In this document: positions 2,640 through 30,097 of the stretch, piece after piece
How the letters are laid out: every line of letters starts with the position of its first letter
How positions within the stretch are numbered: the stretch's first letter is position 1
DNA from: Streptomyces griseoluteus
Lineage (GTDB): Bacteria; Actinomycetota; Actinomycetes; Streptomycetales; Streptomycetaceae
NCBI GenBank assembly: GCA_000717735.1
Contig: JOBE01000035.1
Coordinates: forward strand, 62,001 to 126,000
Length of the DNA stretch: 64,000 bases
Direction of reading: 5' to 3'
The notes under the pieces: generated by a model
What the model was told of the DNA's origin: nothing
Seen by the model: the letters and a program-made list of their open reading frames with translations, nothing else
Database searches by the model: none
Position numbers and translations under genes: made by a program

Positions 2640-3101
2640 ACTGCTCCGGGCGGGCCGACGATGTGGTCGGGTGGATGCACTCGGCTGCTTCCGGCGCGGA
2701 TCGGCTGGTCCCGCGCCGCCACGGTCACCCAGGTCCGCGCCCTCTACGTCGCGGACGGCCTGTTACCGCGCGGCCTGAACGAACCGATGCTGTGCCGGTG
2801 GGAACACGACTCCGGCGAGCGCCCTGACCGCGAGTACACCGTCATGCTCTGCCGCACCTATGGCGCCGCCCCCGCGCAGCTCGGACTGGGCTTCCCCGAA
2901 CACCTCGGCTCGGGAAGCAAGTTGTCGGCGGTGATCCGGTACGGTCGGCCCCAGACCGCACGTGCAGCGCTGGCGCACGGGAAATGGTGGTGCACATGAC
3001 CACAGCCGCCGGCCTTCCGACCGTCCGTGAATCCCTCCAGCTCGCCCTCCGCGCCGCCCCCACGCAAGCACCGCAGTCACCGAGCCGGCAGACGCCGCCG
3101 T
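2640..3101 (+). pseudogene. Broken XRE/helix-turn-helix regulator remnant
   Basis: In one frame (ending at 2999) the translation contains TVTQVRALYVADGLLPRGLN followed by CRWEHDSGERP, the pattern of the DNA-binding region of actinobacterial XRE-type regulators. A second frame (from 2996) continues with MTTAAGLPTVRESLQLALRA, which looks like the next part of such proteins. The two are offset by a frameshift, and the reading is cut at about 3102 by an IS630-type terminal repeat. No convincing start is seen. I read it as a decayed regulator interrupted by an insertion element. Confidence 0.5.
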
Positions 3102-3126
3102 CGGTGAACCTTCCCGGCCACAGCAC
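3102..3126. repeat. Solo IS630-type terminal repeat
   Basis: CGGTGAACCTTCCCGGCCACAGCAC matches, with a few differences, the right terminal repeat of the complete IS630-type element at 9136-10878 and is in the same orientation. No matching left end or transposase lies beside it. It coincides with the end of the broken regulator reading. Confidence 0.6.
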
Positions 3127-3148
3127 AAGCCGCTGGCCGGAACGTGAC

Positions 3149-3181
3149 GGAGCCCGGGAGCATGTCCAGCTCCCGGGCTCC
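3149..3181 (-). terminator. Strong hairpin downstream of the permuted tRNA pair
   Basis: Arms 3149-3161 and 3169-3181 are perfect 13-base complements (GGAGCCCGGGAGC) with a 7-base loop. It lies about 55 bases beyond the last tRNA-like half on the leftward strand and could end that transcript. Confidence 0.65.
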
Positions 3182-3234
3182 AGCTTGCCACCCATTTGCG
3201 CACACCGGCGGCGTTTAAGAGCCGCGGGTCATGT

Positions 3235-3311
3235 TGAGATCGACGTGTTCTGCCTTTGAACTACAGCGCCACGAGAGAGGCGCCGAGGGGACTTGAACCC
3301 CCATCCGTCGA
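3235..3311 (-). tRNA. Circularly permuted tRNA gene (anticodon probably CTC)
   Basis: On the minus strand the 3' half comes first. It has an anticodon-stem strand CGACG (3310-3306), a short variable region, a T arm with TTCAAGT loop, and a 3' acceptor strand CGGCGCC (3285-3279). Eight bases later the 5' half follows: acceptor GGCGCTG (3270-3264), TA, D arm GTTC-AAAGGCA-GAAC, A26, and anticodon-stem strand CGTCG (3245-3241). The acceptor strands pair over 7 bp with one G-U, and the anticodon stem over 5 bp. Joining the halves at 35/36, 36/37 or 37/38 gives the same loop ATCTCAT, hence anticodon CTC (Glu code). The variable loop is short (about 3-4 nt) and no CCA is encoded. Flanking bases 3326-3318 and 3228-3219 can pair (9 bp, one bulged G). 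Confidence 0.7.
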
Positions 3312-3377
3312 TGTTCGCCCACGCTCGGTCGATCCGGTGTTCGGCGGCGAATACTGAGACTGGAGCGAGAATCTGAG

Positions 3378-3461
3378 TTTCACGGGGCCGCCTCTGCCAG
3401 CCTTGGGCCACCCCCGCACGCGGTGCGGGGAGAGGGATTCGAACCCCCAACTGACACCCCT
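3378..3461 (-). tRNA. Circularly permuted tRNA gene (anticodon probably GAA)
   Basis: The minus strand again shows the 3' half first. It has an anticodon-stem strand GGGGT (3460-3456), variable region, T arm GGGGG-TTCGAAT-CCCTC, acceptor TCCCCGC (3431-3425), then A73 and CC. After a 7-base spacer (ACCGCGT) comes the 5' half: acceptor GCGGGGG (3417-3411), TG, D arm from 3408 to 3390, and anticodon-stem strand GCCCC (3388-3384). The acceptor pairs over 7 bp (one G-U) and the anticodon stem over 5 bp (one G-U). Joining at 36/37 or 37/38 gives loop GTGAAAA, anticodon GAA (Phe); joining at 35/36 would give GAG. No ordinary 5' half lies upstream of the 3' half. Flanks 3376-3369 and 3472-3465 pair over 7 of 8 positions. 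Confidence 0.7.
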
Positions 3462-3536
3462 TCATCAGCTTCAACATCAGTTTCAGCTTGCGCTCATCGC
3501 GCACCCTCCGCTCGCGACGGAGGGCGTATGTGGGGG

Positions 3537-4268
3537 CTACCGGAAGAGGTAGCCGAATACCGCGTCGCCGACCCGCTGGTCGGTGACCTCGGTGTTGTTC
3601 GCCTCCTCGCGAGCGAACTTGACGGACTGCTGGAGCTTCTCGACGCGGTCGAGGAGCTCGTTGACCCGCCGGGCGGGCAGCGCGCCGGAGAACTTCACCG
3701 TGGTCCAGTAACCGACCGGGACGTCCTCGTAGTACACCTCGACCTGCGCCGGGTGCTTCTCCGTGGCCTCAGCTTTCACGTGGTTGCGCGGAACCTTCTT
3801 CGTGCGGATGGTCCGCACCGGGTCCGTCTTCCACGAGTCCGTCGAAGGGTCCAGGTTCCACGACTCGGAGGCGTCGAGCACTGGCAGCTTGCGCACGAAG
3901 GTGTGCAGGTCAGTGAGTTGCTTCTCCAGGAACAACAGGTACGGGACGGGCACCTGGGGCAACAGCACCGTACCGTCGACCACCACGTCCGCGACCGCGG
4001 ACCGGTTCGCCCAGTCCTTCGTCGCGGTCACGTCGAAGAGCCGCGTCAGCGTCCCGGCGGTCGCCCGCAGAGCGTCCTCGGCCTTGATCTGCACCCGCGT
4101 GGACTCGGGCGGCAGCTGCTCGCCCTCCTCGTCCTTGGGCTGGTAGGTCCGGGAGATGCCGGCCAGCAGGGCGGGCTTCTGCACGTCCTGGTGAGCCTGG
4201 GTGAGCTCCTGGAGAGCCTTGGACTTGACGCCCTTTTCGACTGCGATGATCTGATTCAGCTTCGGCAC
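3537..4268 (-). CDS. Conserved phage-like protein (DUF7873-type)
   Basis: A complete 243-residue protein beginning MPKLNQIIAVEKGVKSKA, with GISRTYQPKDEEGEQLPPES near residue 40 and a conserved C-terminal region with VYYEDVPVGYW. From memory, relatives occur in Streptomyces and in actinobacteriophages and carry the name DUF7873; no biochemical role is known to me. It contains no membrane segment or signal peptide. It is on the same strand as the permuted tRNA pair and ends about 75 bases before it, so gene and tRNAs may share a transcript. Phage-type gene next to tRNA genes suggests a phage or plasmid origin. Confidence 0.65.
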   Translation of the reverse strand: MPKLNQIIAVEKGVKSKALQELTQAHQDVQKPALLAGISRTYQPKDEEGEQLPPESTRVQIKAEDALRATAGTLTRLFDVTATKDWANRSAVADVVVDGTVLLPQVPVPYLLFLEKQLTDLHTFVRKLPVLDASESWNLDPSTDSWKTDPVRTIRTKKVPRNHVKAEATEKHPAQVEVYYEDVPVGYWTTVKFSGALPARRVNELLDRVEKLQQSVKFAREEANNTEVTDQRVGDAVFGYLFR

Positions 4269-4509: not shown

Positions 4510-4539
4510 CGGCACGGTGAACCTTTCCGGTCACAGCAC
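4510..4539. repeat. Second solo IS630-type terminal repeat
   Basis: CACGGTGAACCTTTCCGGTC followed by ACAGCAC and TA is nearly identical to the right end of the element at 9136-10878, in the same orientation. The last two codons and stop of the leftward DciA-like gene lie within it, so the gene's own 3' end was replaced here. Confidence 0.65.
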
Positions 4540-5285
4540 TAGGGCCTGCTGCAGGACATCCCCCAAGGACGTCGGCGCCTCGTCCTCCTGGCCCTGCTCG
4601 GGGTCGGGGAAGACGGTGGCGGCGAGGTCGCGGCGGACCTGCTCCTGTCGTCCGACGGCGGCGGCAAGGGCGGGGTCCTGCTGAAAGGGCGTCCACGCCG
4701 TGTGGTGAGCGGCAAGCGTGCGCCGGAATCCCTCGGAGGCGGACTCCCTCGTCTTCACCGGCCCGGCGGGCGCGGGGACGCTGGCGGCGGAGGCCGGGGT
4801 GCTCGGGGCGGAGCCGGACTGACCGACCCGGATCGTGCGCACGGCGGCCGCGCCAGCCCGCTGGTTCGCGGCGGCGATGATCCGGGGCGTCATCAGGCGC
4901 AGCTGGGTGGCGTAGGCAGGCGGGTCGGGGAGCAGGTCGGGCTGACCGGTCTCCGCTTCGAATGCGACGGCGATGCTGTGGGTGGCGAGCTTGGGCGCGA
5001 CGGCGGTGGCGATGTCGGGCCGGCGATCCAGGATGCCGCCGTCGGCGGCCGGTACGTCCCGGCCCCGGTCGGCCATCAGGCCCCGGAAGAGCCCGCCGCC
5101 CGACCGGCGCGCGCCCGTGGAACTGGATGGCTGCCTTCCTCCGGGGGCGGGGTGCATTTCGGCCTGTCGTTGCCGCGCTGCTTGGCGTCCTGGCGGGCTT
5201 GGAAGAGCGCGAGGCGGGCGAGGTCGACTCCTGACGGCCCCGAGGCGGCGTCCTGCTGGGCGGAGACGGGGGCGGTGTCGGTCAT
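4531..5285 (-). pseudogene. DciA/DUF721-like protein gene with a frameshift
   Basis: The N-terminal part starts at ATG 5285 behind AAGGAGG and reads MTDTAPVSAQQ...SGVDLARLALFQARQDAK, typical of DUF721/DciA proteins, which in many bacteria load the replicative helicase. That frame runs to a stop near 5076. The family's central part (LMADRG, then AVAPKLATHSIAVAFEAETG and PAYATQLRLMTPRIIAAAN) is in a second frame, open from 5157 to 4531. The shift must lie between about 5157 and 5090. The 3' end runs into an IS630-type repeat. I infer a formerly intact plasmid- or phage-type gene inactivated by a frameshift and by 3' replacement; a sequencing error could mimic the shift. Confidence 0.6.
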
Positions 5286-6210: not shown

Positions 6211-7125
6211 TCACGCGTCCAGCGCGTCGGCGTACAGCGTGAACAGGCGCAGCTCGGAGGTGTCGGGGGCGCTGCCGGCCGCCCGGGCTTCGCGGAGGTG
6301 TCTCCAGCAGTCGGCGGCCAGGCGGCGGGCCTGGCCGCCCGGCCAGGGAGTGGGCAGGAGTTCGGGCGGCAGGAGGGGGTCGGGGGTCATGGCCGCGCTG
6401 AAGAGGGCGGCGAGTTCGACGGCCGTCGTGAGCCGCTCGGCGTCCGACGGCGCGGGCCCCTGAGTGAGCCGGGTGAGGCGGGCCTCGGCGAAGGACGCGA
6501 GCTGCCGGTGCCGCGCGGCGATCTCCTCCAGGGGCCACAGCGCGGCGGCCAGGCCCCGGGGGTCGGTGGTCCTTCCGATCCGCAGGTCCGTGGTGGTCAG
6601 GCAGGTGAGGCTGTCGAGGACGCCGAGGTGGTGGGCCTGCGTTTCGACGAGGTCCGTGACGGGGTTGGCGGTGACGTACAGGCCGCTCTGGAGGGGTGCG
6701 GCGCCAATGCGGAGGAGGCTCTCGCGCAGGGTGTCGCGGGCGGCGCGACGCGATTCGGGGATGGCGAAGCCGAACAGGTGCCAGGTGCCGTCCCACGGGG
6801 CGAGCCCTGCGTCCTGCCGGTAGGCGTGCCGGACGTAGGCGGCGTCCGGTGCCAGGGATCCCGTGACATCGGCGACGGCGCGGAGAACGGCTTTGCGCCC
6901 GCGGCCCTCCTGGGTGAAGCGACCCTCGTCGACGAGGCGTTTGACGCACAGCCGCACCTGTTGGTCGGTCATGTGGAGAAGGCCGGCGACGGTGTAGAGC
7001 TCGCCCGCGTCGACGGTGCCGTCCTCGCGCACGAGGGCGTGGACGAGCAGCCGGGTGGGGATGTCCGGCGCGCCGGGCCCGCCGGCGGCAGGGTCGGTGG
7101 CGTGGCCGGTGGTGCTGGTGTTCAT
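6211..7125 (-). CDS. PaaX-family transcriptional regulator
   Basis: 304 residues. An N-terminal winged helix (LLVHALVREDGTVDAGELYT...QQVRLCVKRLVDEGRF) is followed by the central PaaX region WDGTWHLFGFAIPESRRAAR and a C-terminal helical domain, the layout of PaaX-type repressors that control phenylacetate or other acyl-CoA pathways. It is the second gene of a two-gene operon: its ATG overlaps the stop of the GNAT gene by 4 bases. No paa catabolic genes are nearby, so its target is more likely local, for example the divergent hydrolase and its own promoter (inference). Confidence 0.85.
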   Translation of the reverse strand: MNTSTTGHATDPAAGGPGAPDIPTRLLVHALVREDGTVDAGELYTVAGLLHMTDQQVRLCVKRLVDEGRFTQEGRGRKAVLRAVADVTGSLAPDAAYVRHAYRQDAGLAPWDGTWHLFGFAIPESRRAARDTLRESLLRIGAAPLQSGLYVTANPVTDLVETQAHHLGVLDSLTCLTTTDLRIGRTTDPRGLAAALWPLEEIAARHRQLASFAEARLTRLTQGPAPSDAERLTTAVELAALFSAAMTPDPLLPPELLPTPWPGGQARRLAADCWRHLREARAAGSAPDTSELRLFTLYADALDA

Positions 7126-29600: not shown

Positions 29601-30097
29601 TCGGCCGCCGCAACACCCGCGCCCGCATGATCGAGTTCCGACGTGGTGTCCTCCCGCCGTACCCCACCCTCCTTCACGGACTCCGCCACCACCGCATCAC
29701 CGCCGACGCCTGACACCCCTGGATGCTGCGCATCCTCGACGCCCCCGGGGCCATCCGGCTCCGCGGCTGGCCCACCGACGTCACCACCTCCGTACCGATC
29801 GAGATCGAGAGCGAGACCAGCGGCTCCTGGGACCGGTGGATGCTCCACATGAAGGCCGGAGCGGCCGAGATCGTACCGACCCACGTCGAAGGACAGGTCG
29901 CCTTCACACGGCGCCAGCTCGCGGTCCGGAACGCCGGCGGCTACCGCTCCACCACATCCGCCCGCATGGCCGGGGTCCACGCCGTATCGGAGAAAGCGCT
30001 CGCGACCCTCGTCCGCAGCACAGCCGAGTTCGAGCCCTGGCTCCCCGACCACTTCACTTCTAGTCTTCCGAGTCAGGAATTCTGTTCAGATAGCTAG
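29588..30097 (+). pseudogene. Eis-like GNAT acetyltransferase C-terminal pseudogene
   Basis: The frame reads FRRGVLPPYPTLLHGLRHHR, then a TGA at 29711-29713 where HPWMLRILDAPGAIRLRGWP expects a Trp, followed by the SCP-like C-terminal domain (WMLHMKAGAAEIVPTHVEGQ, RSTAEFEPWLPDHF). This matches the C-terminal part of Eis-type acetyltransferases. The GNAT domains are missing, and the end runs past the normal C-terminus through a small shift. Confidence 0.65.

What the first reader, a model, noticed from the sequence alone, without database searches (positions are those of the whole stretch)
3235..3461. Two circularly permuted tRNA genes side by side in a bacterial genome
Both tRNA sequences on the minus strand have the 3' half first and the 5' half 7-8 bases later. 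Seen directly: in each, the acceptor strands pair over all 7 positions (TCCCCGC with GCGGGGG; CGGCGCC with GGCGCTG) and the anticodon stem over 5 positions (GGGGT with GCCCC; CGACG with CGTCG), only in the permuted order. T loops (TTCGAAT, TTCAAGT) and D arms are normal. Two independent units built the same way make chance very unlikely. Established knowledge: permuted tRNA genes with circular RNA intermediates were described in red and green algae. Inference: this bacterium makes these tRNAs from circular precursors. Likely anticodons are GAA and CTC, from joining at 37/38.
Basis: partly seen in the sequence, partly recalled or inferred. Interest (0 to 1): 0.95.

Follow-up and report, generated by a model that had tools for sequence, protein, structure and literature searches.

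The report
Two-armed tRNA-mimic RNA beside DUF7873
What looked like two scrambled tRNA genes is most likely one long structured RNA with two tRNA-shaped arms, kept beside the same unstudied protein in soil bacteria and some of their viruses, which points to an undescribed RNA-protein partnership rather than to unusual tRNAs.

Summary
On the minus strand, two units have the tRNA order 3' half, 7-8 nt, 5' half, with full acceptor and anticodon stems. It is not chance: a finder gives 134 such units in 71,320 nt downstream of DUF7873 in 80 relatives and none in 1.77 Mb (both strands) of the rest of those loci. The stems covary across 57 sequences.

They are probably not tRNA genes. Both units are arms of one RNA of about 377 nt (3149-3525). 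The "anticodons" vary, no strict bulge-helix-bulge is present, seven relatives replace arm 1 with a plain hairpin, and the genome has ordinary tRNA-Phe(GAA) and tRNA-Glu(CTC).

The arms resemble the tRNA-mimic module of bacterial Y RNAs: Rfam YrlA gives the two best, sub-threshold matches, and a covariance model of arm 2 also finds Ro60-linked RNAs. But no Ro60 gene was found in this genome. The RNA goes with DUF7873: all 118 Streptomyces genomes with a listed whole-model match have that gene just upstream. I propose a Ro60-independent, Y RNA-like RNP. Protein binding and function are inferred.

The parts
3537..4268 (-). DUF7873 (PF25283) gene, 243 aa, immediately upstream of the RNA on the same strand
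   Evidence: ORF list; Pfam E 6.9e-121; AlphaFold2 model pLDDT 93.8, pTM 0.78
3149..3525 (-). whole structured RNA, about 377 nt; ends inferred from the first and last conserved hairpin
   Evidence: conserved blocks and consensus structure; sequence
3504..3524 (-). 5' hairpin CCCTCCG/CGGAGGG just after the stop codon
   Evidence: sequence; a hairpin of 8 bp or more in this stretch in 81 of 98 sequences, 16 of 98 after shuffling
3476..3489 (-). 5' strand of the helix enclosing arm 1 (AAGCTGAAACTGA block)
   Evidence: RNAalifold columns 12-24 with 200-212
3353..3366 (-). 3' strand of the helix enclosing arm 1
3384..3460 (-). arm 1: permuted tRNA-like module (anticodon-3' 3456-3460, T arm 3432-3448, acceptor-3' 3425-3431, linker 3418-3424, acceptor-5' 3411-3417, D arm 3390-3408, anticodon-5' 3384-3388)
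   Evidence: YrlA match 25.0 bits
3241..3310 (-). arm 2: permuted tRNA-like module (anticodon-3' 3306-3310, T arm 3286-3302, acceptor-3' 3279-3285, linker 3271-3278, acceptor-5' 3264-3270, D arm 3247-3261, anticodon-5' 3241-3245)
   Evidence: YrlA match 24.1 bits
3311..3348 (-). 5' side of the long stem carrying arm 2 (GCCGCCGA...GGATCGACCG...)
   Evidence: RNAalifold columns 219-247
3187..3240 (-). 3' side of the stem carrying arm 2, with the conserved CTTAAACG and GGGTGGCA blocks
   Evidence: RNAalifold columns 367-407
3149..3181 (-). terminal hairpin GGAGCCCGGGAGC...GCTCCCGGGCTCC, terminator-like, without a U run
   Evidence: RNAalifold columns 437-471, with compensatory pairs

Best explanation
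The locus encodes a two-gene unit: DUF7873 and, directly downstream, a noncoding RNA of about 377 nt. The RNA has two arms, each ending in a module folded like a tRNA but entered through its anticodon stem, with the acceptor stem usually capped by a short loop. Such a module cannot decode, but it presents the tRNA elbow and acceptor helix to tRNA-binding enzymes, as the YrlA module of bacterial Y RNAs does. Shown here: the structure, its covariation, the close link to DUF7873, the likeness to Ro60-linked RNAs, the lack of a Ro60 match in this genome. Inferred: DUF7873 binds the conserved body (about 0.75); the arms dock a tRNA-handling enzyme or nuclease, making a Ro60-independent Y-RNP-like particle (about 0.5); the exact task, such as redirecting a nuclease like PNPase or acting as a decoy for tRNA-cutting enzymes in phage conflict, is open (0.2-0.3 each).
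For: The finder hits two modules downstream of DUF7873 in 72 of 88 sequences and one in 16 of 88. Covariation: 54 of 81 consensus pairs have double-sided changes; acceptor stems paired in 99.5% and 100% of cells, anticodon stem of arm 2 in 91.5% with 5 of 5 pairs compensatory. One RNA: conserved helices enclose both arms. Arm 1 is replaced by a plain hairpin in 7 of 66 non-redundant sequences. Model R1, built on arm 2 and its stem, against PF25283 in the same 246 Streptomyces genomes: 118 with both, 0 RNA only, 1 DUF7873 only (a truncated copy); at 119 of 120 DUF7873 places the arm-2 match starts 26-351 nt beyond the DUF7873 match on the same strand. Phage and viral DUF7873 loci: an R1 match in 20 of 20 at E up to 0.002, 16 of them over the whole model with at least 62 bits, 3 of the other 4 partial (5 of the 16 were in the training set, and two pairs of contigs look near-identical). 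Reverse test from an RNA-only DNA pattern: of 9 viral loci, the 3 with an R1 match all encode DUF7873, the other 6 show neither. Y RNA likeness: YrlA gives the best two of 12 Rfam matches, is matched (E up to 1) in 6 of 7 other DUF7873 RNA loci, and the 10 listed R1 partial matches that are not of the 28-102 type all lie 1,118-1,181 nt from a TROVE match.
Against: All YrlA scores on this RNA and its relatives are below the gathering score of 69. The RNA is longer than the 90-150 nt given for YrlA (passage of PMC8394870) and no TROVE gene was found in this genome. DUF7873 has no solved relative by sequence (best E 0.92), no convincing fold match and is not basic (pI 6.5, median 6.3 over the 67 aligned proteins), so RNA binding rests on linkage alone. 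RNAalifold does not predict the anticodon stem of arm 1 on alignment A1 but a different short helix there, and the tRNA-type stem pairs in only 70.9% of cells, partly through misaligned columns. Arm 1 begins its linker with ACCA in 41 of 86 units, which would also suit a chargeable end. In L089 the Rfam tRNA model just reaches its gathering score (29.0 bits) on the 5' half of arm 1 plus the 3' half of arm 2; such cross-pairing of acceptors is possible in 1 of 73 sequences with both arms. No expression data. TROVE lies next to DUF7873 at only one locus held.
Confidence: 0.78

Rival explanations
1. True circularly permuted tRNA genes: the transcript is cut at both sides of each unit, the ends at the anticodon loop are ligated to a circle, then RNase P and tRNase Z remove the linker to give a working tRNA.
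For: Gene order 3' half, short linker, 5' half; complete arms; ACCA at the start of the arm-1 linker in 41 of 86 units; GAA and CTC are the commonest triplets; arms covary.
Against: Strict BHB in 0 of 83 and 0 of 84 units; the relaxed form in 9 of 83 arm-1 units (above the shuffled rate of 0.037) and 0 of 84 arm-2 units; anticodon triplets not fixed; arm 1 dispensable; both arms are built into a larger conserved structure; ordinary tRNA-Phe(GAA) and Glu(CTC) present.
Confidence: 0.05
2. Two-piece, tmRNA-like use: RNase P nicks the capped acceptor stems, CCA is exposed or added, and the arms are charged while the RNA stays in one complex, as in two-piece (permuted) tmRNA.
For: ACCA directly after the acceptor stem in 41 of 86 arm-1 units; TCCA in 4 of 87 arm-2 units.
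Against: NCCA in only 4 of 87 arm-2 units; arm-1 linkers of some relatives grow to 17-36 nt, as in a capped stem; no permuted-tmRNA match listed for 3050-3600 at E up to 10. A tag frame was not looked for.
Confidence: 0.1
3. A structured 3' UTR that controls the DUF7873 mRNA (stability or tRNA sensing), not an RNP partner. It overlaps with the best explanation and is not exclusive of it.
For: The arm-2 match lies 26-351 nt beyond DUF7873 on the same strand at 119 of 120 places; terminator-like end hairpin.
Against: Size, two modules and the invariant bases of the body exceed what a terminator or stability element needs (inference); at Ro60 loci similar modules lie upstream of the protein gene instead. 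Not excluded.
Confidence: 0.12
4. Decayed junctions of a tandem tRNA array, which show 3' half then 5' half by nature.
For: A tandem tRNA-Asn pair does score weakly with model R1.
Against: No outer halves here; strong covariation over 57 sequences; close protein linkage. It remains a plausible evolutionary origin.
Confidence: 0.01

Closest known systems
Bacterial Y RNA, YrlA (Rfam RF02553), partner of Ro60/Rsr
   Same: Same permuted order of arms in the model alignment (T arm, acceptor 3' strand, loop, acceptor 5' strand, D arm); module entered through a stem; the model of the present RNA also finds Ro60-linked RNAs.
   Different: Two modules in one RNA of about 377 nt; encoded beside DUF7873, not Ro60; no Ro60 match in this genome; YrlA scores 24-37 bits on the DUF7873-linked RNAs against gathering 69.
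Circularly permuted tRNA genes of algae and archaea
   Same: 3' half before 5' half with a short intervening sequence (review PMC3978253, passages).
   Different: No strict BHB, no fixed anticodon, part of a larger RNA, in bacteria and phages.
Permuted (two-piece) tmRNA (Rfam RF04321)
   Same: Permuted tRNA-like end in a bacterial RNA (recalled).
   Different: Not among the Rfam matches listed at 3050-3600; two tRNA-like arms.
DUF7873, Pfam PF25283
   Same: The neighbouring protein matches the profile over nearly its whole length.
   Different: Listed as a family of unknown function; no paper in the held library names it.
yjdF riboswitch
   Same: A non-tRNA RNA with a tRNA-like fold (PMC9142559, start of abstract and passages).
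   Different: An mRNA aptamer whose 5' and 3' ends lie at the acceptor side, as I read the passages; the present modules are entered at the anticodon stem.

Membership tests
Circularly permuted tRNA genes | 3' half precedes 5' half, full tRNA arms | tested here: met
Circularly permuted tRNA genes | bulge-helix-bulge at the junction | tested here: not met
   strict form 0 of 83 and 0 of 84 units; relaxed 9 of 83 and 0 of 84; definition from PMC3978253 passages
Circularly permuted tRNA genes | a fixed anticodon in relatives | tested here: not met
   19 forms in 86 and 18 in 87 units; commonest GAA 30 and CTC 32
Circularly permuted tRNA genes | circular RNA intermediate | not testable with these tools
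   needs RNA
Bacterial Y RNA (YrlA) | tRNA-like module, acceptor stem capped, chain entering at the anticodon stem | tested here: met
Bacterial Y RNA (YrlA) | Rfam gathering score of 69 bits | tested here: not met
   25.0 and 24.1 bits; the one Ro60-linked Streptomyces locus scanned also fails, 41.2 and 31.5
Bacterial Y RNA (YrlA) | encoded with Ro60/Rsr (TROVE) | tested here: not met
   no TROVE match in own genome; DUF7873 in 119, TROVE in 120, both in 65 of 246 genomes, Fisher p 0.097
Bacterial Y RNA (YrlA) | size 90-150 nt with one basal stem of 5' and 3' ends | tested here: not met
   about 377 nt, two arms; size from PMC8394870 passage
Bacterial Y RNA (YrlA) | binds Ro60 and PNPase; tRNA-type modifications | not testable with these tools
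   needs biochemistry
Ordinary tRNA gene | ARAGORN or Rfam tRNA call | tested here: not met
Permuted tmRNA (RF04321) | covariance model match | tested here: not met
   not listed for 3050-3600 at E up to 10
DUF7873 (PF25283) | profile match over the curated cut-off | tested here: met
   403 bits against 27

The most novel reading that the evidence does not exclude
DUF7873 and its RNA form a widespread ribonucleoprotein, independent of Ro60, in which two built-in tRNA mimics act as docking ports for tRNA-handling enzymes. Bacteria and phages share it, and some phages keep it among their tRNA genes, perhaps as a weapon or shield in conflicts over tRNA. It would be a second protein family, after Ro60, to have adopted Y RNA-like tRNA mimicry.
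Probability: 0.5. Interest if true: 0.85.

Novelty: new variant of a known kind. Interest (0 to 1): 0.72.

Why it matters
About half of the Streptomyces genomes sampled (119 of 246) and several phages carry this protein with an RNA that no Rfam family recognises above threshold in the window, tied to a protein family of unknown function. If it is a Y-RNP analogue, tRNA mimicry as a way to assemble RNA-handling machines does not depend on Ro60, and DUF7873 gets a testable function. The presence of both systems side by side in one viral contig (L099) and the position of some phage copies among tRNA genes give an entry into what bacterial and phage Y RNAs are for, which I take to be an open question.

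Tried and rejected

Results and limits against me: 16 of 88 sequences gave one finder hit only (the 88 include the window's own copy L087 and one plasmid held twice); arm-1 anticodon stem weak in the sequence-only alignment; L060 gave no YrlA match; G597 has a truncated DUF7873 without a listed whole-model RNA match, G570 a remnant with the RNA. From the 66 non-redundant sequences, A1 leaves out the 7 short ones and L093, L094. L087, L055 and L007 were dropped as duplicates, not. In one search I used the listed matches over the whole model 1-135, three of them at 45-56 bits, and left out four second whole-model rows (G446, G447, G517, G560) that lie next to a first one and change no genome count. 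The list was cut at about E 2e-6, and R1 was trained only on RNAs found through DUF7873, so diverged RNA-only cases could be missed. The E <= 0.001 tally (230 of 246) includes weak partial matches. In L099 ARAGORN calls a tRNA-Pro at 6293-6366 that overlaps the second of the three YrlA-like matches. The main Y RNA papers (Chen 2014, Wang 2018, Sim and Wolin 2018, Sim 2020) and Burroughs and Aravind 2016 are not held, so a description there cannot be excluded. That I found nothing in print rests on searches of open papers, several with capped lists. The odds given for the explanations overlap and need not add to one.

Full report
What is there. On the minus strand at 3461-3235 two units read in the order anticodon-stem 3' strand, variable region, T arm, acceptor 3' strand, 7 or 8 nt, acceptor 5' strand, D arm, anticodon-stem 5' strand. 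Both acceptor stems pair over 7 positions (one G-U each) and both anticodon stems over 5. ARAGORN reports no tRNA there and Rfam nothing above gathering in the window.

Is it more than chance. The gene directly upstream, 3537-4268, is a DUF7873. Blast against plasmids and phages found the same region in Streptomyces and Nonomuraea records and the DUF7873 gene in Arthrobacter and Gordonia phages. In the 1,200 nt downstream of DUF7873 the finder gave two hits in 72 and one in 16 of 88 sequences, which include the window, its own copy L087 and one plasmid held twice. Over the 80 genome loci it gave 134 units in 71,320 nt downstream of the gene, 0 in 1,770,452 nt elsewhere (both strands counted) and 0 in 360,000 nt shuffled. 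On a sequence-only alignment of 57 relatives the 42 tRNA-type pairs form in 92.9% of cells, 30 of them with changes on both sides; slid by 1-3 columns only 43-54% form. The acceptor stem of arm 2 shows double-sided changes in 7 of 7 pairs with no broken cell, that of arm 1 in 6 of 7 with two broken cells. The anticodon stem of arm 1 is the weak point: 70.9% of cells, and RNAalifold puts another short helix there.

One RNA, not two genes. RNAalifold on that alignment gives 81 pairs, 54 with double-sided changes. A helix (window 3476-3489 with 3353-3366) encloses arm 1; a long interrupted stem (3311-3348 with 3187-3240) carries arm 2; a terminator-like hairpin follows at 3149-3181. A hairpin of 8 bp or more stands between the stop codon and arm 1 in 81 of 98 sequences, against 16 of 98 after shuffling. 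Bases of the tRNA elbow (TTC and A of both T loops, GG of the arm-1 D loop) are invariant in the 57 sequences. In seven relatives (L024, L038, L040, L075, L079, L082, L083) arm 1 is replaced by a segment of 32-51 nt that folds as a hairpin, with the flanking blocks intact.

Why not tRNAs. The triplet at positions 34-36 takes 19 forms in 86 arm-1 units and 18 in 87 arm-2 units, some through a shifted register of the finder; GAA (30) and CTC (32) are the commonest. NCCA follows the acceptor in 44 of 86 and 4 of 87. The strict bulge-helix-bulge that defines algal and archaeal permuted tRNA genes (PMC3978253, passages) is at the junction in 0 of 83 and 0 of 84 units; a relaxed form occurs in 9 of 83 and 0 of 84, the former above its shuffled rate of 0.037. 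The genome has 71 Rfam tRNA matches, with an ordinary tRNA-Phe(GAA) and three tRNA-Glu(CTC). Arm-1 linkers in some relatives are 17-36 nt long, as expected of a capped stem. One exception points the other way: in L089 the Rfam tRNA model reaches 29.0 bits, its gathering score, on the 5' half of arm 1 plus the 3' half of arm 2, but such acceptors cross-pair in only 1 of 73 sequences.

What it resembles. With Rfam at a permissive threshold on 3050-3600, the two best of 12 matches are YrlA, the Y RNA-like family, one on each arm: 25.0 bits (E 0.0044) and 24.1 bits (E 0.008), below its gathering score of 69. YrlA is also matched, at E up to 1, in 6 of 7 other DUF7873 RNA loci given, not in L060. 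A covariance model R1 from arm 2 and its stem in 29 sequences, run on 246 Streptomyces genomes, gave besides the expected matches two kinds of partial match. Those at model positions 28-102 include a tandem tRNA-Asn pair, the one examined (L156). The 10 others listed lie 1,118-1,181 nt from a TROVE (Ro60) match, 10 of 10. At L159 the gene has TROVE (1.5e-12) and YrlA scores 41.2 and 31.5 bits. So a model trained on DUF7873-linked RNAs finds RNAs at Ro60 loci, and at the one such locus scanned these also fall below the Rfam cut-off. YrlA is described as 90-150 nt, with a basal stem that binds the Ro60 relative Rsr and a tRNA-like domain that binds PNPase and is modified by DusA and TruB (PMC8394870, passages).

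Where it differs. The present genome gave no TROVE match. Across 246 genomes DUF7873 occurs in 119, TROVE in 120, both in 65, which is near independence (Fisher p 0.097). Listed matches over the whole of R1 and DUF7873 coincide: 118 genomes with both, none with the RNA only, one with a truncated DUF7873 only; at 119 of 120 DUF7873 places the R1 match starts 26-351 nt (median 209) further on, same strand. In phages and viral contigs R1 matches 20 of 20 DUF7873 loci at E up to 0.002, 16 over the whole model with at least 62 bits; L006, L088, L089, L090 and L099 were in the training set. In reverse, a DNA pattern from the RNA alone found 9 viral loci; the 3 that R1 confirms all encode DUF7873 at 58-67% identity and the other 6 have neither. 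The protein partner is therefore DUF7873, by linkage.

The protein. 7,623 of 7,998 scored candidates are DUF7873 homologs; the family includes sequences named Pyrinomonadaceae and Myxococcota and is matched in Deinobacterium chartae. Sixteen residues are invariant in the 67 aligned proteins. The predicted structure is confident but matches nothing solved in a useful way. Its pI is 6.5, so nothing in its composition marks it as an RNA binder.

Phage setting. In phages Racecar and Phendrix the unit lies among annotated tRNA genes; L093, L105, L100 and L104 also carry 9-15 tRNAs in the stretch held, while L088-L092, L094, L096, L097 and L101 show none. One viral contig, L099, carries DUF7873 and its RNA and, about 1.5 kb further on, three YrlA-like RNAs, also seen by the finder, and a TROVE gene; an ARAGORN tRNA-Pro call overlaps one of the three. 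No other DUF7873 locus held has TROVE in its flanks.

How it most likely works. I propose that DUF7873 binds the conserved body of the RNA and that the arms present tRNA elbows and acceptor helices to tRNA-handling enzymes, so that the particle recruits, redirects or blocks such an enzyme. Structure, covariation and linkage are shown; binding and recruitment are inferred by analogy with YrlA. It works like a Y RNA but fails three tested features (Rfam score, Ro60 neighbour, size with a single basal stem), so I do not file it as one.

Literature. No paper in the held library names DUF7873. Searches for permuted tRNA in bacteria, Y RNA, YrlA, Ro60 and tRNA-like RNA listed nothing that describes this RNA, judging from titles and abstract openings of lists that were in part capped; passages were read in PMC7790460, PMC7824862, PMC8394870, PMC9142559, PMC8058203 and PMC3978253. 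The core Y RNA papers are not held.

Noticed in passing
L159:2950-3300, L160:2350-2660, L161:2480-2790: Ro60 (TROVE) loci of Streptomyces carry their own permuted tRNA-like RNAs, two R1 matches per locus; at L159 Rfam YrlA scores them only at 41.2 and 31.5 bits (gathering 69), so the current model may miss such Y RNAs.
   Followed up: partly
L099:4001-8307: A viral contig encodes DUF7873 with its RNA and, about 1.5 kb on, three YrlA-like RNAs and a TROVE/Ro60 gene side by side.
   Followed up: partly
L006:7105-7633 (Gordonia phage Phendrix): A tmRNA match (89 bits, gathering 47) lies in a gap of the record's annotation.
   Followed up: no
L156 (G398:C2:672900-673250): Two tandem tRNA-Asn genes a few bases apart give a permuted-looking junction that the covariance model scores: a confounder for permuted-tRNA searches and a possible origin of the modules.
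   Followed up: partly
L089:4849-4986: Rfam tRNA reaches its gathering score on the 5' half of arm 1 plus the 3' half of arm 2, the only one of 73 sequences where these acceptors can cross-pair.
   Followed up: partly
window 29854-29951: ARAGORN calls a tRNA-Ala(GGC) of 98 nt that Rfam does not support at gathering; probably false.
   Followed up: no
L060, L061, L062, L070, L072, L073, L076, L078, L084, L086: The linker capping the arm-1 acceptor stem is 17-36 nt long or more in these loci, some of it hairpin-like by eye.
   Followed up: no
G570:C1:5682699-5682953 and G597:C7:279948-280355: Remnant or truncated DUF7873: the first keeps the RNA, the second has no listed whole-model RNA match.
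   Followed up: no
L001 (S. flavofungini plasmid): A 94% identical copy of the region on a plasmid just after two transposase genes, suggesting mobility.
   Followed up: no
window 4531-5157 and 178-1827: Neighbours: a DciA-domain protein and a sodium:solute symporter; neither was tested for conservation beside DUF7873.
   Followed up: no
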